DNA from: Eubacteriales Family XIII. Incertae Sedis bacterium
GTDB taxonomy: Bacteria; Bacillota; Clostridia; Peptostreptococcales; Anaerovoracaceae
Length of the DNA stretch: 36,661 bases
Direction: 5' to 3'
Assembly: GCA_031290135.1 (NCBI GenBank)
Contig: JAITOE010000131.1
Span: 1 to 36,661 of the forward strand
Below the pieces are notes generated by a model, which was not told where the DNA came from, made no database searches, and saw only the letters and a program-made list of their open reading frames with translations. The position numbers and the translations under genes were made by a program. Positions 9,560-29,137 of the stretch are shown here, piece after piece (the stretch's first letter is position 1; the number at the start of each line of letters is the position of its first letter).

Positions 9560-11305
9560 CTAATACCGCCCCAGATCCATCATCCCGGCATCCACAGCCG
9601 CCCCCGCAATCCTTTCGCCTTGCGCGGCATAGCTCATTTTCCCCGTCTCCCCGAGCCTGAACCGTGACAGGATCTCTTTCAGAATTTCCGCCTGCGCCGA
9701 CATCTCCTCCGCCGCCGCGGCCGCCTCCTGCGCCGTGGCCGAAGTCGCCTGCACCACCGAGGAAATCTGCGAAAGCCCCCTGTTGATCTCCGATATCGCC
9801 GTGACCTGGTCCTTTGACAGGCCGCTGATCGACTGCAGCGCCAGCGCGTTCCGCCCCGCAATCTCATCGACCGCCTTCAGCCCCTCCCCCGTGGACACCA
9901 CCAGGACGCCGCCCTCGGAGACCTTGGCGGAACTGGTTTCGATTAAGACCGCCGTCTCCTTGGCGGCCTCCGCCGATTTCGACGCCAGGTTCCTGACCTC
10001 ATCCGCCACCACCGCGAAACCCTTGCCGTGCACCCCCGCCCTGGCAGCTTCCACCGCGGCGTTCAGCGCCAGAATATTGGTCTGGAACGCAATGTCGTCG
10101 ATCACCTTTATGATTTGCCGGATGTTCTCCGAACTCTCACGGATCTCCTCCATTGCCGCCGTCGCCCGGTTCATGGAGCCCGTGCTTCTCTCCATGTGCT
10201 TCCCCGCCTCCCGGACGTCTTCGTAAGCGATGCCGGACTGCTCCATGTTGTTCTCCGCGCCGATGAGCACCTCCGAAACCGTCGCCGAAAATTCTTCCAG
10301 CGCCGCCGCCTGCTGGCTGGAACCGGAAGCCAGCGACTGCGCGCCGACGGCGATCTGCGAGGCGGCCGACGCGACCTGGCTTGCTGTTTCCGAAATTTCG
10401 TTCAGCATCCGGGCATTTTTTTCAATCACCGTATTGACGGACCGGTTCATGACGTCCTTGTCCGAACGGACGCGGATCTGCTCCCGGTAATCCCCGCCCG
10501 CCACCAGGCGAAGCACCCGCGCCTGTTCATGGACGGCTTCCACCATGTTTCCGAACGAACGCGCCAGCTTCCCGATTTCATCCCGCGTGTCGATGGCGAG
10601 CGAAAGGTCTATGTCCCCCTCCGCCAGGGCGTCGGCGGCTTTCGCCAGGCTCTCTATCGGCCTTGCGATTAATTTTTCGATATAAAAACCGATTACAACC
10701 GCCACGCCTATGCCTGCGGCCACCACGGCCAGCATCACGGCCTCCAGCACGGATGCCTTCGTCCCCGCCTCGCCGGCGACCTGTTCCGCCGTATCGGCGA
10801 TATACGCCTGCAGCGCGTCCAGCGCCTCTTTCAGGGCGCCCGCGGCAGCCGCAGCCGCTGTCATCGTTTCCGTGAAGCGCCCGTCGTCGCGCTGCGCGAT
10901 CACAGACGCAAAATCATCCCGCGCGGCAGCGAACGCCTCGTAAGCGGCCGCGACGCCGCCCGCCCGCGCTTTCCCGGCTTCTAAAACAAAACTTCCCGTA
11001 AAGCGCGCGATCAGGTCCCGGCATTCCGCGTCCTTTTCTTTTAGCTCGGCAAGGTTGGACAGCGCCTCGTCGCGTGCGCCTGTGTTGGACCGCGTCGCCG
11101 CCGCCCAGTACAATGCCCGCTGCGCCTGTATGTTCGTCTCCAGCTCGCCGACGTTTATGCTGTCCACCTCAATGCCGCTCATCTGCTTCGTGTCCCTGAC
11201 AATCGTCTGTACGCCGAAAACGCCCGTCAGCCCGACGACGCCCATAATCAGCCCGACCGTCAGAAAACCAACCAGCAGCTTCATCTTAATCCGTAAATTT
11301 TTCAT
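9560..11305 (-). CDS. Methyl-accepting chemotaxis protein
   Basis: 581 residues. Membrane span 1 (10-31), an extracytoplasmic four-helix sensor domain (about 35-185), span 2 (190-210), a HAMP domain (about 212-265, containing [20 protein letters not shown]), and a cytoplasmic signalling domain. The hairpin tip that binds CheA/CheW is intact: [20 protein letters not shown] (402-421) followed by [20 protein letters not shown]. The protein transmits ligand binding to CheA. The ribosome site AAAAGGGGAGGG precedes the ATG. No chemotaxis or flagellar genes lie nearby, so it is an orphan receptor. It is divergent from the LuxR regulator, sharing a 415-base intergenic region. Confidence 0.95.
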
Positions 11306-11477
11306 GCGTCCCTCCCCTTTTATAGGCCATTTTTGTTTTTCAACTGCCTCCGCCAGAGATCATTTACGGTAAATATACCGGATAAATTTGTCCAAAACAC
11401 CGCCCAAATGGTTTTTTTGTATTTATGCGCGTCACACACCCCTGTTTTAAATAATAGTACCAATATGTAAATAATAA

Positions 11478-11507
11478 TTGACAAGCGGTCGCTCGGTAGT
11501 TTATAAT
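11478..11507 (+). promoter_or_regulatory. Consensus promoter of the LuxR-family regulator
   Basis: TTGACA (11478-11483), 18 bases, TATAAT (11502-11507). It lies about 215 bases before the proposed start at 11721, predicting a long leader. The upstream AATAGTACCAA (11453-11463) is shared with the giant-gene promoter. Confidence 0.75.
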
Positions 11508-11513
11508 CGAGAT

Positions 11514-11720
11514 ACAAAATTCCTCGCGAAGGGGAATATTGGAGCTATCGTAACGATAGATTATCAAAAGGGGTTTTGATAAAAGCACCATGCTTTTGCC
11601 GGTGTGGCGGGATCTTTCCGGATACGTTCCGGCGCGTCAGGGGAGACGCGCCTTTTCAAAAGGGGTTTTGACAACGTGTTCCGGCGCCGTCACACCGGCA
11701 ATCGTAGCAGGGGGATTGCC
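11514..11720 (+). promoter_or_regulatory. Structured 5' leader of the LuxR-family regulator
   Basis: The predicted leader contains a row of perfect or near-perfect hairpins: CTATCGT/ACGATAG (about 11543-11557), TTATCAAAA-GGGG-TTTTGATAA (about 11560-11581), AAAAGC/GCTTTT (about 11581-11597), CCGGA/TCCGG, GGCGCGTC/GACGCGCC (11631-11652) and TCAAAA-GGGG-TTTTGA (about 11657-11672). In addition GCCGGTGTG (11598-11606) is complementary to CACACCGGC (about 11691-11699), just before the ribosome site AGGGGG. This would allow alternative foldings that hide or free the start. It does not match a riboswitch class I know. Confidence 0.55.
11631..11656 (+). terminator. Possible intrinsic attenuator inside the LuxR leader
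   Basis: An 8-bp perfect GC-rich stem GGCGCGTC/GACGCGCC with loop AGGGGA is followed directly by TTTT. The T-run is short, so termination would be partial. Position before the coding region suits attenuation. Confidence 0.45.
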
Positions 11721-14261
11721 ATGGAAAAAATACCGGCGCTTCCGGTGAAACAGGGACTGCTTGACAGGCCCCGCATCGACGCGCTGCTTACATGTGCTGT
11801 CCGCGACGCGCTTGTCACCGTGGTCGCGGGACCGGGTTACGGAAAAACACAGGCCGTAGCTTCTTTTATGGCAAATACGCCGGCCCGGCGCATCTGGATC
11901 AACAGCAGCCATCTGAAAAATACGCCTGCCCATTTCTGGGCGGGCTTTATGGGCGCGGCGTCCGAAACGCTCCCCGGCAGGGCGGAGCGCCTGGCGTCCA
12001 TCGGTTTTCCCGGCACGCCGGCGCGCCTTGCCTCGTTCCTGCAGCTTCTGGAAGAAGAAAGCCGTTCCGGCGCGCCGCTCTATTTCATCGCGGACGACTA
12101 TGGACGCATAACGCACCCTAAGATTTTGCGCCTGTTTGAACACATTGTCGAAGCCGGGCTGAAAAATTTCTGTCTGGTGGTGATCAGCAGCACAAAAACG
12201 AACATCGGTGTCATCGGCCTGCGAAACGGCGGGCTGTCCCAGATCACCGCCGAAGATCTGCGCTTCACCGAAGAAGAGGCCCGGCGGCTTTTTTTACAAA
12301 GCGGCCTGTCCTTTTCCGCAAGCCGCCTGAAAGAACTCCTGCGCCGCACGGACGGATGGCCCCTTGCCTTGCATCTTCTTTCCGTGCAGCCGGCAGGGTC
12401 CGGTGCGGGACTGCCCGCGCCCGATGCCTGCGTGAACCCTGAAATCATCCGTGCTTTGTTCCAGGAAGCGTTTTTCTCCGCCTATAGCCCGGAGGTACGG
12501 CATCTGGGCGTCAAACTGGCGCTTTTGCCGGCTTTTTCACTTGAAATTGTCAAGGCGGCGGGCAATTTTGACATGGACGAAGCGAACGCCCTCCTGCGCT
12601 CCAACCTGTTCATCCGTTTCGACCCCGCGTCGCGGCTTTATTCCTGCCAAAATATGTACCGCGCTTTCCTCGCGGAACGCGCCGCCGTTTTGGAACAAAA
12701 GGAAAAAGAAGATTTTTACTCCATGGCGGGCGATGTCTTCCTTGCGCGCGGCGATATGCCCGAAGCCATGGACTGTTTTGAGAAATGCGGCCGCCACGAA
12801 GCCCTGTTTCTTGCCGTCAAACGCTATTCCGGCGAGCGGCCCGGCCTGCTGCAGGAACGCGCGGACTATATCCTGGAAAAATTAGAAGCGCTCCCTGCCG
12901 GGTTTTCCGGGCGGCATCCCTATGCCGACTACATCAAAGCCGCGGTTTATTTCTGTAAAATGGAGTTCGGCCGCTGCCGCGCGTTTTTGGCGCAACTCGA
13001 AACGCGTCTCCAAAAGGCGGGGACGCCGGAAGCTTTCGAACTGCTGGGCGAGGTGTATGTCCTCATGGGCGCGGTCCGCATGTTCTGCTTTAAAGAAGAT
13101 TTCGCGGATTATTTCAAGAAGGCGGTCCGCTGTCTGCCGCAGGGCATGCCTGCCGGACGCCCCAAGCTGCTGTATGTGGGCAACCGCACGGTCATGGGGA
13201 TGGACGGCAGCCTGCCCGGCGCGCTTTCGCGCATGGAAAAAGCCATGCACGGGGCGGCGCCCTATTACCGGCAGGCCGCCCGCGGCGACGCCGGCGGGCT
13301 GGCGCAGCTTTTTTCCGCCGAAGCCCATTTCTTCACCATGAATTTCAGCGCGTCCAAACAGCACGCCTTTCTTGCCATAAAAGAGGGCGCGGAAAACCGG
13401 CAGCACGACATCGTCTGCAACGCCTGCTATATCTTGGCGCGCGTCGCCCTCATGCAGGGCGATTTCAACGAGATGGCCGGGCAAATCAACCTGCTGCAAA
13501 ACCACATAGACGAACATAAAATCGAAGCGCTTTACGCGCTGCGGGACTGCGCCGCCGGCTGGATGCACCTGAAGATGGGCGCGCCCGGGAAAATCAGCCC
13601 CTGGATCCTGTCCCCTGACTTTGACGCCCGGCAATGGAGCGTCGTCACGCACGGGCGGGATCTGCTTCTGTATCTCCAGTATCTGCTGCACAACGGGAAA
13701 TACGACGAACTCATGCTGCGGCTCGATCAAACGGAGCAGATTTACGCCGCGCACGGGAACTGGGCGGCGAAACTGACCCTGCACATCCTGCGCGCCATAT
13801 GTTATATGCGCAGGCGCGAACTTCCGGCTGCCATGGACGCGTTCCGGAAGGCCTACGGCATGTCTCATCAGAACCATGTCATCCAGCCATTCGTGGAGTT
13901 TTTCCCTTACCTGCGCGGGCTCATGGAAACGGCGAAGGATCCCGGCAGCCCCATCGAACCCGAATGGGCGGACCGGATCGGGAAGAAAGCGTCCAGTTTC
14001 AGCAAGCGCCTTTCGGCTGTCGTCAAGGAATACCGCGCGCATGACGCCGGCGCGCCGAGATCCTCCGTGTGCCTGTCGAAGCGGGAGAAAGAAGTTTTGC
14101 ATGATTTGTCGCAGGGTTTCACGCGGGAGGAGATCGCCAGCTCCAATTATGTTTCCATCAATACCGTCAAGAGCGAAATCCGGAATATTTACAATAAGCT
14201 GGGCGCGGTGAACCGGGCGGACGCGGTCCGGATTTCCACGGTGCTGGGGATATTGAAATAG
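11721..14261 (+). CDS. MalT-like LuxR-family (LAL-type) transcriptional regulator
   Basis: 846 residues, typical of large ATP-binding LuxR regulators. An N-terminal STAND-type ATPase has Walker A VVAGPGYGKTQAVASFM (34-50) and a Walker B-like LYFIADDYGRI (120-130). A helical, TPR-like middle (about 380-760) is followed by a C-terminal LuxR helix-turn-helix beginning LSKREKEVLHDLSQGFTREE, with VSINTVKSEIRNIYNKLGAV as recognition helix. ATG 11721 with AGGGGG upstream is preferred over the longer upstream frame, which runs through the hairpin leader. Such proteins bind an inducer in the TPR region and activate sugar, surface or secondary-metabolite genes. The giant surface gene just downstream (convergent) is a candidate target. 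Confidence 0.92.
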   Translation: MEKIPALPVKQGLLDRPRIDALLTCAVRDALVTVVAGPGYGKTQAVASFMANTPARRIWINSSHLKNTPAHFWAGFMGAASETLPGRAERLASIGFPGTPARLASFLQLLEEESRSGAPLYFIADDYGRITHPKILRLFEHIVEAGLKNFCLVVISSTKTNIGVIGLRNGGLSQITAEDLRFTEEEARRLFLQSGLSFSASRLKELLRRTDGWPLALHLLSVQPAGSGAGLPAPDACVNPEIIRALFQEAFFSAYSPEVRHLGVKLALLPAFSLEIVKAAGNFDMDEANALLRSNLFIRFDPASRLYSCQNMYRAFLAERAAVLEQKEKEDFYSMAGDVFLARGDMPEAMDCFEKCGRHEALFLAVKRYSGERPGLLQERADYILEKLEALPAGFSGRHPYADYIKAAVYFCKMEFGRCRAFLAQLETRLQKAGTPEAFELLGEVYVLMGAVRMFCFKEDFADYFKKAVRCLPQGMPAGRPKLLYVGNRTVMGMDGSLPGALSRMEKAMHGAAPYYRQAARGDAGGLAQLFSAEAHFFTMNFSASKQHAFLAIKEGAENRQHDIVCNACYILARVALMQGDFNEMAGQINLLQNHIDEHKIEALYALRDCAAGWMHLKMGAPGKISPWILSPDFDARQWSVVTHGRDLLLYLQYLLHNGKYDELMLRLDQTEQIYAAHGNWAAKLTLHILRAICYMRRRELPAAMDAFRKAYGMSHQNHVIQPFVEFFPYLRGLMETAKDPGSPIEPEWADRIGKKASSFSKRLSAVVKEYRAHDAGAPRSSVCLSKREKEVLHDLSQGFTREEIASSNYVSINTVKSEIRNIYNKLGAVNRADAVRISTVLGILK

Positions 14262-14336: not shown

Positions 14337-17300
14337 TTACTTGCCTTCCTGCTCCTTCCGGCGCCGGGCGAACGCGTAGAACGCCGCCAGCAGGATGAGG
14401 AGCAGCAGGATGCCGGAGGCGACCACCGGGGCGGCGGGGAACCCGCCGTTTTTCGCCCCGTCCTCCAGGGCGTCCCCGGGCAGTGCGCCCGCGCCGCCCG
14501 CAAGTCCGTCCGCAAGGTCCGCCGGGCCGTCCGGCGGCGCGTCCGCCGGGAATCCGGGCGCGGCGCCCAGCGGAGTCGGGTACTCCTCGAAGACCCATTC
14601 CGCCAGGGGCTCATCCCAGTGCCACACGCCGAGGGGCACCCCGTCCTCGCCGATCTCCACGAAGAAGCCTTCTTCTTCGCCCGCGACCAGCGTGCTGTCC
14701 GGGGCGGACAGCGCCGGGGGCGTTTCCTGCCCTGCGGGGGGCCGCGAAGCCCCGGCGTTCCCGGCCTGGCTCCCGCCCGTGCCGTCGCCGCTTCCGTTCC
14801 CGGGCTGTGTGCTGTTGCCGTTGCCGCCGTTGCCGCCGTTCTGTCCGCCGCCGGGCGCCGCCGGCGGGTCAACGGACGGGTCAGCCGGAGGATCCGCGGG
14901 CGGGTCAGCCGGGGGATCCGCAGGCGGGTCAGCCGGCGGCGTCACGGGCGGGTCGGACGGGGGGTCAGCGGGCGGGTCGGCAGGCGGCGTGTAGCCGTTG
15001 CCGTCCCCCCCGGAACCCCATATGGCGTACACTGTCAGGTCGCCCGCCAGGACCGTGGTTGCCGTGAACGGGTTCCCGCCGCCGTTCGCCGCGGTGTTCC
15101 AGCCGGAGAAGGAATAACCGACGCGGACCGGGTTCGCGGGCATGGCGGCGCCCAGGGTGTTTTCCGGCGCGTGGACGGTGCGGGACGCGTCCCCCGCCGC
15201 CAGCGTGACGCCGTTCCCGTCAAAGGTGACTGTGTGGCGCCGCGTCCACTTCGCGTAAATTGTCAGGTCCGCGTCGGGCATGGCGCTGAGGGCCGTCACG
15301 GGATCCGTGAGGGCGGCGTTCAGGTGCCAGCCGTCGAAGCGGTGGCCGTCCCGGACGGGAGTCCCGTAGCCGGGCGCCGCGCTGACCGGGCTGCCCCAGG
15401 CCGCTGCGGCGGGCGCTATGATCCCGCCGGCCGGGTCGGTGACGGGATATTCCGCGCTGCCCCCCAGGTCGAAGGTCAGCGTCCAGGTGTTCAGCGTGTA
15501 CAGGGCCTCCAGGGTCAGGTCGCCGTAAATTCCTTCCGGGATGCGGTCCGCGGCGGCGCGGGAGGGGTCGCTGCGTTCCATGGTGAAAGCTTCCCCGGAG
15601 GCGTCCCGGGCGCCCGCCCACCCGGTGAACGTGTACCCCGTCCTCGCCGGCGGATCCGGGACGTCCAGGGGCAGGCCGTTGATGAAGTACGAGCCGCTGC
15701 CGGGCGCGCCGTCCGGGTAGACGTAGGTGATGCCGTAGGGAACGGCGGAGACCGCCCATTTTGCGTAGACCGTCAGGGGCGCGGCCGGCATGAGGGCGTC
15801 TGCGACCGGCTGCGTGAGGCCGCTGTCAAGATGCCAGCCCAGGAAGTCGTGGCCGGGGCGGACGGGGGCTATGCCGTAGTGCGCCGCGCCGTCGATCCGT
15901 TCCCCGGCGTCCAGGACGTCCCCGGAATCCCCGCCGGCTCCGGGAGCCGCCGGGTAGAGATCCGCGCGGTACACGCCCGCGCCCGCGTCGCCCATGTCAT
16001 ATGTCAGGGCATCCGTGTGGATCAGCCATTTCGCCTGCAGGACCAGGGTGTTCCCGTTCACGCCGTTCGCTTCCGTGAGCGGCGTGCCGCCCGGGCCGAA
16101 GACCCAGGGCGCGCCGGAGGGATCCGGCTCCGCGTGCCAGCCCAGGAAAGCATGGTCCGCCCGGACGGGATCCGGGTCCGGGGCGGCGGCGACCGTGCCG
16201 TCGTAATCCCCCGCGGGTGTCCTGCTCGCGGACGTTCCGCCGGCGTTCTGGTCGGTGTAGAACACGCCCGGCAGGTAGCGGTAGAGGATGCCGATGCTCT
16301 TGGGTGTCCATTGTGCGTACAGGGTGTGGTCCTCCGCCGCGGCCACCGCGGTGGACGCTTCCACCAGGCTGCCGCCCGCGGCTTCGGTGCGCCAGCCCGC
16401 GAAGTCGTAGCCCGTGCGGCTCATGGAAGGCAGCGCCCCGTAGGCTTGCCCGAAGACCGCGCTCTGGCTGTCCGGCGCCGCGGCGGAGGGGTCGCCCCCC
16501 GCGTTTGCGTCAAAGCTTACGGTGTAGCTTTTTCCCCGCCATATGGCGTAAAGGATGGCGCCGCCCGTCGTGTCGCCGTCCGTCAGGTCGTTGATGGCCG
16601 CCGCGTCCAAGGTGAAAGCATCCCCGCTGTAAGCCGCCTCGGCGGCCGTGTCGGATGCCGCCCGGGAGAAGCCCTGCAGGCCGTAACCCGTGCGGGACAG
16701 GTTTGTCTTTTCCGCCAGGGAAACCGAGTCCCCGATGTTCGCGGTCCGGTCCGCCATGCTCCCCGCCCCGCCGTTGGCGCCGAAGCGTATGGTGTAGGTC
16801 CTCTCCGTCCAGACGGCGTAGACGGTCACGCTGTCCCCCTGGAGGATCGCTGCTTCATCGATGAGGAGCTGCCCGTTCGTTCCGCCCGTCAGGGCGGGGC
16901 CGTCCGGGGTCTCCGACCAGCCCGCGAAGGCGTGGCCGGTGCGGCGCAGGCTTCCCGTGTTCCCCATCAGGTTCGCGGTGTTGCCGTCGTTGTAGACCGT
17001 CCCGTCCCAGGGGACGGTCCCGCCGTCGTTCCCGTTGCCGTCGTAGAGCACGTAATACGGGAGGGGCGGGGTCGCCCACACGGCGGTGAGCGTGACGGCG
17101 CTGTTCGCGTCGCCGGCCATCAGGGTGTTTATCGCCGCCGCGTCCAGGGTGAATCCGTCGCCGCCGTAGACGGGGGCGGATTCAAGCGCCGGGGACCCGG
17201 GGGAGAATCCCTTGAGCAGGTAGCGCTGCGACAGGACCGGGTTTCCGGTCAGGCCGCTCTTCCCGGCGAAGGAGACCGTCTCGCCGATCCGGGCTGTCAC

Positions 17301-20300
17301 GTCCGCCATGTTCCCCGTGCCGTAGCTGCCCGCGGAGAAGCTGAACGTGTAGGTCTTTTTCGTCCAGACGGCGTAGACTGTCTTCCGGGGGACGCCCGCG
17401 TCTTCCGCGAAGTCTATGACATGGCCGACGGAAAAGTCTGCATCGTTGCCCGCGCCGCTGTACGTGCTCCAGCCCGCGAGGCTGTATCCCGTCCGCGAGG
17501 GGCCCTCGGACGCCGAGGGGAAGTCCGCGGCCGTGAGCGCTGTCCCGTAGGTCAGGTTTATGGTGTTCGTCTTGCTTCCGTTCGTCCCGCCGTTGGCGTC
17601 GAAGGTGAGCGCCGCGTTGGCCTTCGGCGTCCACCGGGCTTTCAGCGTGACAGACGCCGTGAGGTCGTTTGCGGCCAGGTCCAGGTAGGCGTCGCCGCTT
17701 GTGACCCCGGTCTTCGTCCCGCCGGCGGTGACGTCCCAGCCCGCGAACGTATAGCCGTTCCTGGCGGGATTGGCGGCGGGCAGGAGGTTCGCGTCGTCCC
17801 ACTTCACGCCTGTCTTCGCGGAGATGGCGGAGGGGTTCCCGCCGTCGGTGTCATAGTTCACCGTGTAGACGTTCTGGTTCCACTTGGCGTATAAATTCAC
17901 GGTTTCCGTGCGGATGGCGTCCGTGCCGAAGGTCCAGGGGACGGATGCCGCCCGGTCCGTGTGCCAGCCCGCGAAGTTATAGCCCGTGCGGGACGGGTTC
18001 GCGGGTTCCGTGAGCTTGTCGCCGAACTTCTTGGCGGCGTTGGCGCTGTTCCCCGCCGCGTACTGGGTACTGTCCGCGCCGTCGTAATTCAGGTAGAACG
18101 CCACCGCCGCGTCCTTGACCGTCCAGCGGGCATAGAGGCTGTGGGGCGCCGCGTCGGCGACGTTGCTTTCGCCCGTCACAAGGCTGCCGGACGCGGGGGC
18201 GGTGTACCAGCCCGCGAAGTTATATCCGTAGCGGACGGGGTTCACGGACGACAGCGCGGTTCCGTAGGTCCTGCCGTAGCTCACCATGACGGAAGCCGGT
18301 ATCCCGCTCACGGTGCTGTCGCCGCCGGCATTGGGTTCAAGGGTCACGGCCAGCGCGGTCTTCTTGAATTTCAGGGTGACGGGAGCGGAGGCGTTGCCGG
18401 CCTTGTCCGTCACGGTTATGCTCACGCTGTATTCTTTCGACGGCGTGAACGGGGCGCTGTCTACGTTTATGGTAACAGTTCCTTCCGTGCCGCGGTCCAC
18501 GTGGTAGCCCGGCGGGAGGACGGTGAAAGCGCCGCCGCCGGTGACGGGCACGGCTTCCGCGGCTCCCGTGGTAAGGTCGTCCGCGGTGATCGCCACGCTG
18601 ACGTTGTTCGCGGCGGTTGAGGTATAGTCAAGGGGCGTGCCGGCGTCGGTGAAAGAGAAAACCAGGTTGCCCAGGGGGTTCTCCAGGGCTGATCCTACCG
18701 TGTCCGTCCGCACTACCGAGGGCGCGTTCGTGTCTTTGTAGCGCATGTAGGGGTTTTCGCCCCGCAGGTTTTCGTTGCCGGTCACCGTGACGCCCACGCC
18801 GGCGAGGTGCACCTTCAGGCCGTTCACGTCGGCCGGGTCATACAGCACATAGGGGTCTGCGGCGGTTCCGGCGGGCCTGCCGGAAAACAGCAGGACGAAG
18901 TCGCCCGACGTAATGTTCAGGCCGCCGTCGAAATAGAAGCTGCCGTCCGCGCCCACCTCGGCGACGGCGTCCAGCAGGGAATTGTCCGCGTCCGCCACCG
19001 CCGCGTTGCCGTCGCGGATGCCGTCTTTATTTGCGTCCGGGTACAGCTTGGCCGTGTAGCCCTGCGTGTAGGTGTAGTCCGTGAGGGGGGTCCCGTCGCT
19101 CTTCAGGAGCACCGCCTGCCCCTCCAAGGGGGTGGTGGCGGCGAAAGGCAGGTCGAAGCCCGTCAGGTCTTTCCGGGACGCGGCCGTGCCCAGGCTCCCC
19201 CCGCTGGTTCCGTTTATGAAGACGGCGGTGCTGTCCGCGGTCGCCCCGCTGCCGCCGAAGTCCACGAAGACACGGTCCGTGCCTCCCACGTCCACCACCT
19301 TGTACAGGCCGCCTGTCACGGAAGCGTTCAGGGGCTTGACGTGGCGGTCCTCCGGCATCAGCACCTCCAGCCGGTAGTAATGGCCGGCGTCGAAGTCGAT
19401 GTCCGTGATGTCAAAGCGGCCGGTCTTGGCGGGCTGGTCTATGTCGTAGGTGGTGACTACGGCTGTGGTGGGCGCCCAGCCGCCCGCGATGTCGCCCGTG
19501 TCGCTCTTCCAGAGGCGGAGGGCCACGCGCGCCAGGGGCTTGAAGCCGGCTTTCTGGTCGGGCGTGGCCGTGTTGCCCAGGCCGTCGCTGTCTAAGTAGA
19601 CGTAGCCGCCTATGCTGCCGGCGTCGTCTTTGGCGGCCGCCATCTGCAGGATGACCCGCCCGGTCTCCCGCAGCACGGACTGGTTCGCGTTATCCAGGGC
19701 GCTGTAGCCCATGGTGTTGTACGCCGCCCGCAGGGGAGGCGCGCTTGTGCGCGGGTAGCCGGGGGCTTCCTGCACGGCGGCGCTGAACTGCAGGTAGGCG
19801 ACCTGGCCGGGTTCAAGGGGGGCATTCAGCGTCACCTGCACCGCCCGCACCGCGGTGCCGGGGCTCTCCGTCCAGGCGCCGCTTCCGGAGGATCCGAGCC
19901 GCGCGGGGTCCGGGGATTCGGAAAATTTCAGGCTGTACCCGTTGGTCGGGACGGGCGGGGCGCCCATGTTGCGCCGGTCGCCGATCAGGACCTTGAAGTT
20001 GGAGGCGGCCGCCTGGGGCACGAGGCTGAACTGGGAGCCGCGCGGGTTGTCGCTTGTCACGTATTTGTCGCCGGCTCCCGGCATCAGGGCGGTCATCACG
20101 AAGCTGCGATAGCGCTGGGTGCCCATGTTCATCACGCCCATGCGGAAGTCCGCCGAGTAGCCCGGGATGATGGGGTCTATGATCTGCGGGTTCCCGGACG
20201 CGTCTACGGAGGAACGCCAGGCGTCCTCTCCCGTCAGGGAGGGGCGCACCATCAGCACGCTGTCCGCGCTGGCGTTTCCGGGTACGGTCATGATGCTTTT

Positions 20301-23300
20301 TCTGAGGTAGACGTCACTGTTTTCAAGCCCCAGCTGCTCTTCCAGGTCAAGATCCACGACCTGGCTGAGGTTATCGAACACTTCGTCCGCGAAATCCGTC
20401 TCCAGCTGGGTTTTCGCCGTTTTTGCCAGCACGGTGCTTCCGACGAGAACCGGCGTGAGCTTGCTCAGGTCCTGCGCCGCGTCAAGGCTGCCCATGCCCG
20501 CGTAAATGGGGTAATCGCCCGCGGCGATGCCGCTTTCAAGGGTGAAGGTGTTCTGGACGATGAGCGCCTCCGCTTGGAAGCCGCCCAGCCCCTGGCCCAG
20601 AAGACGGCTGCCCGGCGCCTTGAAGTAGAGCAGCTTGTAGCCGCCCCCTATGGAAATCTCCCCCGTCTCCTCGGGCGCCTGGGGGGAGGCGGGGTACTCC
20701 CGGTAGAGGGGATAGTTGTACCGGTAGGGAAAGTCGTTCTGAAAGTCGGTCTTCTGCATCCCCGTCAGATAAGGATAGTTTCCGAAGCGCTCCACTTTTA
20801 TCTGCTCCGGCAGCAGGTAGAAGACGTAAGGGGAGGAAAAGCTCCCATTCCCCGCGGACACCCCTATGTGGGAGCTGGTCTGCCAGACGCTGCCCGGTTC
20901 TTTCTCGCCGGAGAAGTAGGGGGTGCCGCCCAGGCCCTTGGGGGCTTCGTACATCCACGGGCTGAAGGTGTCCGTGGCGTTCCTGGCGGCGCCGACGGTG
21001 TAGGCGACTTCCCAGTCCGTGAGATACCCGGACGACCAGGGCACGGGGATGTCCGGGTTTCCCTCTGTGGCCGCGGCCGTGTTCTGGGTGCGGTAGGTGA
21101 ACGAGTCAAAGCCGAAAGAGAGCTTACCGGACGCGCTTCCCAGCACCTTGCCGTTGAGCGTAAGCCCTCCCCGGTAAACGAGGATGCCCGTGGCATAGTC
21201 CCGGAAGACAAGTTTCAGTTTTTCTATGTTGTTTTGATCCGCCGCCGGTATGCGAAAACCGAGGATGACCGGGCCGGAGGTTTCCCGGGTAGCCTGGCGG
21301 AGGGGCGCGTCCGGGGCGTCAGAGCGCAGCCGGTAGTACAGCGAGAGCAAATCGAAGTTGGACTGGGGCATGACGCTCTCCACGGATACCCCGGCGGGGA
21401 CGTCCAGCATCCCCGTCATGTCGTAGATGGGCGAGTCCACGCCGATGAAGCCTAAATAGACGCTCCAGTTGTCCCCCGCGCCGACGGTCTCTCCCGGGGA
21501 ATCCGCGCTTTTCAGGGTTCCGGGGGCTTCGAGCCCCTTGAATGTCATTGAACTCACACGCAGGTTCTGGGTCGTGAGGTTCACCTTGTAAGTCTTCGGG
21601 CCGTACGACACGGTGCCGCCGGACTGCAGGTCTTTCACCGTCACGTTCACCTCGTATGTGAATCCCTCGTGAACCGCCGTCAGGTTCAGGCCGGTACGAG
21701 TTGTGTAGTATCCATCAATAAAATACACCTGGTAGATGTCGTTGCCGTTGACGGGGCCTATGTCATAGTAGGCGCCTTTTCGCTCCGGATCTCCCATGTT
21801 TTCCAGGGGGCTTACCCGGGCAGTAAGCGCGTCCGCGTTGGAGGAACCGGGCACTTTCTTGGTGCCTATCTCGGCCGTGGACGCCAGGCCCGTGCCGGAG
21901 GTGCCGTAAAAACCCATGAGGCGAAGCACCTGCCAGGGCGCGAGCTGCGCCGCCGCGATCTCATCCGGGGTTTTGCTGTCCGGCTCCGTCGGCACCCCGG
22001 GGGTAACTTCCGCTTCCACGACCAGATGGGCGAAGCTGCGGCGGGCGGAGGGGTCGGCGTAGCCATTTTCAATGACATAACCCACGTTGCCGTTGTTGAC
22101 GCCCACGCCCACGCTGACGGAAGTCGTCCCATTGAAGCGCCAGACGTTGTCGCCCTGCACCACCAAGGGGACGTTTCCCGTGAAGCCGTAGGTCAGCGCA
22201 AACTCCCCGTCCACTGTCTGGGACGGAGAGACGGCGGAGGCGGCCAGGGTGACGGTATGCTGCGAATTCGAGACGGCGGTCGCCCCCAGCGCCTGCGCCA
22301 CCAGGATGTCCAGCTGGTATTCCGCCTGGGGGTTCATGGGGCTGGGCAGGGTGTAGGTCATCTCCGGGTTTCCGGCGGTGTACGCCACCGTCCCCGCCAC
22401 GGGCACGGGCTTCGTGGCGTAGGTGAACGCGGCGTCCGGCAAAGCGACGACCACCTTGCCGCCCAGCAGCGCCGCGTCGAAAGAGGTGTTCTTCACGGTA
22501 AGGCGCAGGCGGGCGGAGGGATTTGTTTCATCGAGGGTCGTGACGTCGCTGGCGACGGAAATGACCAGAATGTCATCCGCCAGGGAGATCATGAGGTTTT
22601 CTATGGCTTCTTCTTCCTCTTCGGGAAGGGGCTGTTCCCCGGGAATGGGTTCTTCTTCGCCCGGAAGGGTCTCTCCGGGGCTGTCCCCCGGGGCAGGCGC
22701 CACGGTGAAGTTCAGGACGGCGACCGGTTCGCCGGGGGATGTGCCGCCACCGGGGGCCGTGTCGTCACCGGAAGTCGGGGCGGGGGATGTACCGTCACCG
22801 GAAGTCGGGGCGGAAGCATCGGAACCTGAGGCCGGGGATGTGCCGGAACCGGAGGCCGGGGCGGGGGATGTGCCGTCACCGGAGGCCGGGGATGTGCCGG
22901 AGGCATCGTCACCGGAGGCCGGTGCGGGATCGCCGGAACCGCCGTCACCGGAGGCCGGGGCGGGGTCCGCAGCGCCGGAGGCCGTGCCGGAACCGGAGGC
23001 CGGGGGCGCGTACCCGTGGGAAAGCAGCGTCAGGCTGTAGTCGCCCGCCGCCGCAGTGAAGCTCAGGACGGCGGACCCGCTGACGGTGAGCGTCCGCGCC
23101 GCGCTGTCATACGCCGCGCCCGATCCGGTGCAGCTCCAGGCCATCCGGGATCTCCATGTAGGTCCGGGGCGCCTCCGGCGGGTTGTCGGCCCGGATCTGG
23201 AATACGGCGTCCTCCGCCGGACTTTCCCCAAGGAGCTGCAGCACGTCCGGGTTCTCCCCGGCCGCGGCGAACGCCGCGGCTCCCGTGCCGTCAGCAGGGG

Positions 23301-23490
23301 CAGGCGCGCCCGGAAACGCTCCCGTGTCGGTTGGCTGGCTGGTTGGCAGGCCGGCGGCAAAGGCACCCGTCCCGGTGCCGCAGACCAGCCCCAGGACCAG
23401 GACGAAGGACAGCAGCCGCGCCCATGCGCGCCGCTTCATTCCGCGGGTCCCGTTCCCGCCGTTCGTTTTATTCTTCGTTTTATTCTTCAT
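14337..23490 (-). CDS. Giant surface protein with Flg_new/InlB-like repeats; frameshift near the N-terminus
   Basis: About 3050 residues if one surplus base near 23110-23140 is ignored. The start ATG 23490 (site GGAGG) opens a signal peptide with a basic head and LLSFVLVLGLVCGTGTGAFA. That frame continues to RTYMEIPDGLELHR and hits a stop at 23107. The long frame takes over at AAYDSAARTLTVSGSAVLSF and runs to 14337. Order after the signal: a Pro/Ala/Ser/Gly/Asp linker (22735-23005), an acidic stretch, several beta-rich domains of DUF11-like character, an SdrD_B/Cna_B-like domain (GSIGGYVYLDSDGLG, about 19600), an Ig-like domain (about 18370-18680), 13 repeats with GY-F-GW...LYAKW (about 15015-18360), a PADP-rich wall-spanning stalk, and a C-terminal hydrophobic helix with RRRKEQEGK. 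No LPXTG is visible. Probable adhesin; frameshift could be decay, phase switching or assembly error. Confidence 0.85.
14863..14994 (-). repeat. Short tandem repeat coding for a PADP-rich stalk
   Basis: Units of 12 bases (GGGTCAGCCGGC-like on the plus strand) encode repeated PPADP, with variants PPSDP and PPVTP. This kind of proline stalk typically spans the cell wall. Repeat number is prone to change by slippage. Confidence 0.75.
22735..23005 (-). repeat. Degenerate tandem repeat coding for a PASGDG-type linker
   Basis: Units related to CCGGAGGCCGGGG (plus strand) encode repeated PASGDG, ASGSG and TSPASG. It forms a low-complexity linker behind the signal peptide and is a site for length variation. 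Confidence 0.75.
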
Positions 23491-28567: not shown

Positions 28568-28622
28568 GCTTCACCTTTCAGTTGTAGTATTATGGATTTT
28601 AGGTAATGTGGTTATTTCAATA

Positions 28623-28744
28623 CGTATAATAGCCGCCCCTTGGCTGTCATACCATAAATGCTTGCATTTATGGTACTGCCATCTCCGGCTGTAGCCGGAG
28701 GGCACTCTAATCCGGTATAATAGCCGCCCCTTGGCTATTATACC
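28623..28744. repeat. Palindrome cluster upstream of surE
   Basis: The unit GTATAATAGCCGCCCCTTGG occurs twice (from 28624 and 28715). The second copy is a perfect palindrome, GGTATAATAGCC/GGCTATTATACC. Between them lie two more perfect stems: ACCATAAATGC/GCATTTATGGT (28651-28674) and CTCCGGCT/AGCCGGAG (28683-28700). The last stem core recurs at 28962-28977. Confidence 0.7.
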
Positions 28745-28803
28745 ATAAAACAAACCTTGCGAAAGACATTTTTTTGCGGCATTTTTTGTTACGCATGGTG
28801 CCA

Positions 28804-28936: not shown

Positions 28937-29137
28937 TGGATTGCTTCGGCGGTGAACTCTTATCCGGCTAAAGCCGGAGAGTTCTGCGGCAGCAAAGCTG
29001 CCCGCATAAGGTTCGCTTAGCTATTTCCTGCCTACGGCATGAAATAGAGCGAAACCATTATCGCACGGCACCTACCATCCATTTGCTGTGCAAATGGGGT
29101 TAGGTGCGCGTCGCTTCGCTCCTCGCAATGACGGAGG
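28937..29137 (+). repeat. Dispersed repeat half, interrupted by a 162-base multi-hairpin insertion
   Basis: TGGATTGCTTCG (28937-28948) and TCGCTTCGCTCCTCGCAATG (29111-29130) are contiguous in the copy at 32812-32845 but are separated here by 162 bases. The insert forms successive stems: GAACTCT..TCCGGCT/AGCCGGA-GAGTTC (28954-28985), GCGGCAGC/GCTGCC-GC (28986-29005), a long stem closed by GGTTCGCT/AGCGAAACC (29010-29056), and the 40-nt hairpin GCACCTA/TAGGTGC (29068-29107). Confidence 0.65.

What the first reader, a model, noticed from the sequence alone, without database searches (positions are those of the whole stretch)
11478..11720. Hairpin-packed leader with an alternative-pairing option before a LuxR regulator
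A consensus promoter drives about 207 nt containing at least six hairpins, two of them with the same core CAAAA-GGGG-TTTTG, an attenuator-like stem with TTTT, and a 9-base complement (GCCGGTGTG with CACACCGGC) linking the middle of the leader to the region before the ribosome site. This is more structure than an ordinary leader and fits no riboswitch I recognise.
Basis: partly seen in the sequence, partly recalled or inferred. Interest (0 to 1): 0.6.

Follow-up and report, generated by a model that had tools for sequence, protein, structure and literature searches.

The report
Leader RNA matched to small RNA
The stretch before this regulator gene makes a heavily folded RNA whose G-rich hairpin tips look built to be grabbed by a small C-rich RNA that is widespread in this group of gut bacteria, which would let that small RNA control how much regulator is made.

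Summary
In detail: a 12/12 consensus promoter precedes about 207 nt that fold far better than shuffles (z about -6) and lead into a MalT-like LuxR gene (11721-14261). The 9-base complement is part of a 15-bp helix, P1. Folding alone means little here: 11 of 106 intergenic regions sampled in this genome reach z < -5.

The sister LuxR gene in another genus (G185, 40% identity) has the same plan: P1 (15/15 pairs, two compensatory changes), an AGGGG-loop hairpin and an exact 17-nt TTCAAAAGGGGTTTTGA hairpin. Twenty-two other relatives examined lack it.

A likely partner emerged: a C-rich small RNA (LhrC-like plan, no Rfam match) with blastn matches in 276 of 349 family genomes. Its invariant ACCCCUUUUGAA is the perfect antisense of the conserved hairpin; its other C-rich parts match the remaining G-rich hairpin and the Shine-Dalgarno (runs of 11, 8, 12, 8; 0 of 2000 shuffles reach the sum).

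Best reading: an sRNA-receiving leader, probably repressed by the sRNA. Pairing, expression and sign are untested, and net binding energies do not beat shuffles. Attenuator, riboswitch and ANTAR readings are not supported.

The parts
11478..11507 (+). sigma-70-type promoter TTGACA-18-TATAAT
   Evidence: 12 of 12 matches
11515..11541 (+). hairpin H1 (contains AGGGGA, 6-bp match to the sRNA terminator loop)
11545..11559 (+). hairpin H2
11561..11582 (+). hairpin H3 TTATCAAAA-GGGG-TTTTGATAA; 11564-11574 is an 11-nt perfect complement of the sRNA linker
11596..11610 (+). P1 helix, 5' arm
   Evidence: 15 of 15 pairs kept in G185
11687..11701 (+). P1 helix, 3' arm
11618..11684 (+). P2 helix (11618-11628 with 11673-11684), not evidently conserved in G185
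11631..11652 (+). hairpin H6 GGCGCGTC-AGGGGA-GACGCGCC; 11638-11645 is an 8-nt complement of the sRNA terminator loop
   Evidence: (85% block with G185)
11655..11671 (+). hairpin H7 (T)TCAAAA-GGGG-TTTTGA, identical 17 of 17 in G185; 11655-11666 is the 12-nt perfect antisense of the invariant sRNA seed
11697..11720 (+). ribosome-site hairpin GGCAATC/GATTGCC, exclusive with P1
11709..11716 (+). Shine-Dalgarno AGGGGG(AT), 8-nt complement of the sRNA 5' hairpin loop ATCCCCCT
11721..14261 (+). MalT-like LuxR-family regulator, 846 aa

Best explanation
The leader is an sRNA-responsive 5' untranslated region. A long helix (P1) frames hairpins that present G-rich loops, and the ribosome site itself is a further G-rich element. 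A small C-rich RNA encoded elsewhere (G000 contig C67, minus strand; C-rich loop in a 5' hairpin, C-rich single-stranded linker, C-rich terminator loop) docks on these hairpins: linker on H7 (or H3), terminator loop on H6, 5' loop on the Shine-Dalgarno. The most likely result is lower translation of the LuxR regulator. Shown by computation: the leader and its conservation in the sister gene, the sRNA gene's wide conservation and invariant seed, and perfect complementarity in two species. Inferred: that both RNAs are made together, that they pair, and that pairing represses.
For: Leader conservation: colinear blocks P1-5', H6, H7, P1-3' between window and G185; P1 15 of 15 pairs in both, 2 two-sided and 2 one-sided changes, none breaking (one bulged base left out of the G185 arm); random placement of the 4 arm substitutions keeps 15/15 in 189 of 200,000 trials. 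TCAAAAGGGGTTTTGA occurs in 2 of 349 family genomes and 2 of 393 order genomes, a set that overlaps the family set: the same two, in these leaders only, GGGG always on the coding strand. The two LuxR proteins are sisters, support 100/99. Partner: blastn matches (E <= 0.1) in 276 of 349 family genomes; ACCCCTTTTGAA in 55 of 55 copies fetched, chosen from the best matches; terminator stem with two-sided changes (8 of 22 pairs overall); found in 14 of 24 genomes of other families of the order and in 0 of 22 genomes of other LuxR carriers, 7 of 7 Synergistaceae included. Pairing: runs of 11, 8, 12 and 8 Watson-Crick pairs at H3, H6, H7 and SD; 0 of 2000 dinucleotide shuffles of the sRNA reach the sum, 2 of 2000 give 8 or more at all four, 9 of 2000 give a run of 12; same 12-mer in G185 (4 of 2000); 2 of 2000 shuffled leaders reach 12; 2 of 5530 other 207-nt pieces of this genome do. 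Listeria LhrC has the same three-site plan and binds the G-rich ribosome-site region (PMC4132741, passages).
Against: The sRNA was noticed because it resembles the complement of the leader, so the shuffle figures are not corrected for that search. Accessibility-corrected net energies are not better than shuffles: 35 of 60 shuffled sRNAs bind the window leader as well and 26 of 60 the G185 leader; the cofold gain is matched by 4 of 60 shuffles. H7 is closed as a hairpin in the predicted fold (probability 0.99). Only two leaders are known. The start codon and promoter of the G185 gene are uncertain, and its putative ribosome site (ACAGG) does not match the sRNA 5' loop. No expression data.
Confidence: 0.6

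Rival explanations
1. Sponge: the LuxR leader mainly captures the sRNA (several docking sites) and so relieves its other targets, as RosA does for RoxS.
For: Four matching sites in one leader; Gram-positive sponge precedent RosA (PMC8216469, abstract).
Against: One of the sites is the gene's own Shine-Dalgarno, which suggests control of the gene itself; abundance unknown.
Confidence: 0.12
2. Activation: sRNA pairing at H7/H3 opens P1 and its extension over the ribosome site, letting the ribosome in.
For: P1 and a lower extension partly mask the SD; blocking P1 leaves most SD bases in a hairpin loop; C. difficile SpoX raises spo0A translation from an upstream site (PMC10267692, passages).
Against: H7 lies inside P1 but is not part of it; the sRNA also matches the SD.
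Confidence: 0.15
3. The G-loop hairpins are read by a protein (ANTAR regulator or CsrA), not by an sRNA.
For: Read as hexaloops AGGGGA and AGGGGU, H6-H7 have A1 and G4 like ANTAR targets; each genome has one ANTAR gene and one csrA.
Against: H6-H7 linker is 3 nt and the G185 pair 2 nt; in E. faecalis eut linkers are 5-12 nt and 3 nt failed (PMC3369931 section 7). No terminator overlaps in a conserved way. H7 holds no GGA for CsrA. Neither explains the exact antisense match to the sRNA.
Confidence: 0.1
4. Ordinary hairpin clutter: this genome is full of palindromic repeats and the leader is one more, with no regulatory role.
For: 11 of 106 intergenic regions have z < -5, many dispersed repeats, including the leader of the LuxR paralog on C260.
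Against: This leader is single-copy and its P1, H6 and H7 are conserved in another genus with compensatory changes.
Confidence: 0.08
5. TCAAAA-GGGG-TTTTGA is a DNA operator for a dimeric regulator.
For: Inverted repeat, exact in three copies.
Against: Both window copies lie downstream of the promoter; the GGGG centre and strand are fixed in 3 of 3; it would not explain P1 co-variation.
Confidence: 0.05

Closest known systems
LhrC sRNAs of Listeria and their lapB target (PMC4132741, passages read)
   Same: sRNA with CU-rich motif in a 5' loop, in the single-stranded stretch and in the terminator loop, binding a G-rich stretch before the start codon.
   Different: No sequence membership: Rfam LhrC scores 20 bits against a gathering score of 110. 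Single copy found by model R1 in G000, where Listeria has several. Target here is a multi-hairpin leader, not one G-rich stretch.
RsaA and mgrA of Staphylococcus aureus (PMC3961350, abstract and outline)
   Same: C-rich sRNA pairs with the SD and makes a second, loop-loop contact on the mRNA of a regulator.
   Different: Second contact is in the coding region there, in the leader here.
RosA sponge of RoxS/FsrA in Bacillus subtilis (PMC8216469, abstract)
   Same: An RNA that captures sRNAs in a Gram-positive bacterium.
   Different: RosA is an sRNA, not an mRNA leader.
ANTAR dual-hairpin targets (PMC3369931, sections 7, 10 part 1 and 20)
   Same: Tandem hairpins with A1/G4 hexaloops can be drawn.
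   Different: Linker too short, no conserved terminator overlap.

Membership tests
[quoted passage not shown]
   sequence and consensus fold; conserved core runs from the -10 box to the terminator; the transcript itself was not observed
LhrC family (Rfam RF00616) | score at or above gathering | tested here: not met
   20 bits against 110; no family above gathering in 12 loci
sRNA-target leader | conserved complementarity in more than one species | tested here: met
   12-nt run in window and G185, two species only
sRNA-target leader | net binding energy beyond shuffled sRNAs | tested here: not met
   35 of 60 and 26 of 60 shuffles as good
sRNA-target leader | binding and effect in the cell | not testable with these tools
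   needs gel shift and reporter
ANTAR target | two hexaloop hairpins, A at 1 and G at 4 | tested here: met
   (AGGGGA, AGGGGT at 11631-11671)
ANTAR target | linker of about 5-12 nt | tested here: not met
   3 nt; 2 nt in G185 by reading
ANTAR target | second hairpin overlaps a terminator | tested here: not met
   no terminator on + strand
CsrA target | GGA in the conserved hairpin loop | tested here: inconclusive
   absent from H3/H7, present in H6 (sequence)
known riboswitch or Rfam leader | match to an Rfam family | tested here: not met
   window; G185
transcription attenuator | conserved terminator hairpin with U-tract | tested here: not met
   TTTTC only; GAGG follows the equivalent hairpin in G185

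The most novel reading that the evidence does not exclude
The leader is a purpose-built receiver array: a LuxR gene of a clade shared with Synergistaceae entered this Clostridia family and gained a leader whose separate G-loop hairpins each fit a different C-rich module of the order-wide sRNA, wiring a foreign regulator into a native sRNA network (as target, sponge, or both).
Probability: 0.35. Interest if true: 0.75.

Novelty: new variant of a known kind. Interest (0 to 1): 0.6.

Why it matters
It would give a rare case where a likely horizontally acquired regulator was plugged into a host small-RNA network through an array of docking hairpins, module for module. It also exposes a deeply conserved C-rich sRNA, in 276 of 349 genomes of the family and 14 of 24 genomes of other families of the order, for which I found no Rfam match. 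Exact-string paper searches for its core found nothing, though such strings are rarely printed in text, so it may be known under a name I did not search.

Tried and rejected
Rfam families for leader, G185 leader and sRNA: none above gathering. Dispersed-repeat origin: leader single-copy; short-word search found only 11-20-nt matches. C83 hits of the hairpin lie at the scpA/scpB coding region. LuxR relatives up to about 31% identity and the 39-45% Synergistaceae ones: no comparable leader. Coding potential of the leader: no conserved peptide (best E 0.067). GGGG-loop hairpins are not enriched genome-wide (its CCCC column is no control, since both strands were counted). ANTAR dual-hexaloop scan: 8 hits against 4 in shuffles. 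I first set the C67 match aside as chance (note) and came back to it after reading about C-rich sRNAs; its control with random 95-nt pieces is invalid (absurd energies) and is not used. The MAFFT alignments of the two leaders misplace H6 or P1 in part, so P1 was compared arm by arm. First genome-contig scan found nothing.

Full report
What is there. The window (G000 contig C214) carries a consensus promoter at 11478-11507, about 207 nt of leader, and a gene for an 846-residue LuxR-family protein with a C-terminal GerE domain and a MalT-like N-terminal part below the MalT cut-off. A methyl-accepting chemotaxis gene is divergent (9560-11305). The leader folds with z -5.99. Folding strength alone is weak evidence here: 11 of 106 intergenic regions in a 242,694-base sample score below -5, many through dispersed palindromes.

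Conservation. A blastn search of the leader found it once in its own genome and in 0 of 60 relatives. A protein search over 349 genomes of the family gave one close relative, G185 contig C120 (40% identity, E 2.3e-174). Its upstream region holds the same hairpin. Local comparison shows colinear blocks: 11593-11610 with 2722-2739 (P1 5' arm), 11632-11651 with 2762-2781 (H6), 11655-11671 with 2839-2855 (H7, 17 of 17). The 3' arm of P1 follows in both. P1 was found independently in each MFE fold. Fifteen of 15 pairs stand in both, with C-G to G-C and U-A to C-G changes and two one-sided changes, one bulged base being left out of the G185 arm; sliding the arms by 1 to 5 gives at most 10 pairs. The G185 region also folds below shuffles (z -4.17).

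Distribution. TCAAAAGGGGTTTTGA is in 2 of 349 family genomes and 2 of 393 order genomes, overlapping sets, only at these leaders. Of the 24 upstream stretches printed, hairpins with a GGGG tetraloop or AGGGG loop occur only in L161 (one weak 4-bp stem in L173; L171 had only 126 nt upstream). In a 30-row tree the window and G185 proteins are sisters (100/99), next to seven Synergistaceae. The leader was therefore probably gained on the branch to these two.

The partner. The G-loop hairpin scan of 585,495 bases of this genome pointed to contig C67, whose minus strand carries GGTTAT-CCCCC-TAATAACC, then AATCCCAATACCCCTTTTGAACAA, then a 15-bp stem with loop TCCCCT and a T-run. By eye a -10 TATAAT lies just upstream; one search did not list a minus-strand promoter. 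I first dismissed this. Searching it as DNA gave matches at E <= 0.1 in 276 of 349 family genomes, most of those listed spanning from the -10 box to the terminator. In 55 copies, taken from the best matches, ACCCCTTTTGAA is invariant. The terminator stem changes on both sides in many copies (48 of the 55 aligned). Model R1 found it in G000, G185 and 14 of 24 genomes of other families of the order, not in G190, and not in any of 22 genomes of other LuxR carriers (stricter filters, some genomes may be incomplete). Where shown, the copies of other families keep CCCAAUACCCCUUUU while the terminator differs.

Pairing. The 12-nt seed is the exact antisense of 11655-11666 and of 2839-2850 in G185. 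H3 offers 11 nt, H6 eight, the Shine-Dalgarno eight. No dinucleotide shuffle of the sRNA in 2000 reaches the sum of 39. In 585,495 bases three places outside the sRNA gene have 12 nt or more. Against this, net energies after paying for opening both RNAs are ordinary (-8.6 kcal/mol at H7; 35 of 60 shuffles do as well), because any C-rich RNA finds G-rich loops; and the sRNA was found by its likeness to the leader, so these counts are not corrected for that. The support rests on the length of the perfect runs, the module-by-module fit and conservation, not on energy.

Mechanism. Most likely the sRNA docks on the hairpin loops and covers the Shine-Dalgarno, lowering translation. P1 and the ribosome-site hairpin exclude each other, so opening of P1 could instead raise translation; the sign is not settled. 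In G185 P1 extends over ACAGG before the likely start, but that start is uncertain. A sponge role is possible.

Relation to known systems. The partner is built like LhrC (three C-rich sites) but is not a member by Rfam score. ANTAR targets resemble H6-H7 in loop letters, but the linker is too short by the published test and no terminator overlaps. Terminator attenuation is not conserved. Literature statements rest on: PMC3369931 sections 7, 10 (part 1) and 20; PMC4132741 passages; PMC3961350 abstract and outline; PMC8216469 abstract and outline; PMC10267692 passages. That the named host MAGs come from termite and cockroach guts is recalled, not from a call.

Noticed in passing
G000 contig C67, L054:4957-5048 minus strand: Highly conserved C-rich sRNA gene, with matches in 276 of 349 family genomes and 14 of 24 genomes of other families in the order, not in Rfam 15.
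   Followed up: yes
11397-11405 and 11436-11442; upstream of LuxR relatives: ACACCC motif (often AAAATACACCC) stands upstream of 17 of 50 LuxR genes examined, against 1.5 in shuffles and 3 for the reverse complement: a likely LuxR operator.
   Followed up: partly
L069:6541-6648 (G000 contig C260): Leader of the LuxR paralog is also highly structured but contains a dispersed palindromic repeat seen in L055, L063 and window 29021-29103.
   Followed up: partly
window 28568-28756: Intergenic block with three long hairpins and a repeated TATAATAGCCGCCCCTTGGCT unit on both sides.
   Followed up: no
L056:3403-3540 (G000 contig C83): Three copies of a TTTCAAAAGCGGATT unit at the scpA/scpB junction (gene names recalled from the protein sequences).
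   Followed up: no
window 14337-23366, minus strand: 3009-residue protein with List_Bact repeats (TIGR02543), likely a surface protein.
   Followed up: no
L154-L178: Close relatives of this MalT-like LuxR occur across several phyla, suggesting transfer between gut bacteria.
   Followed up: partly
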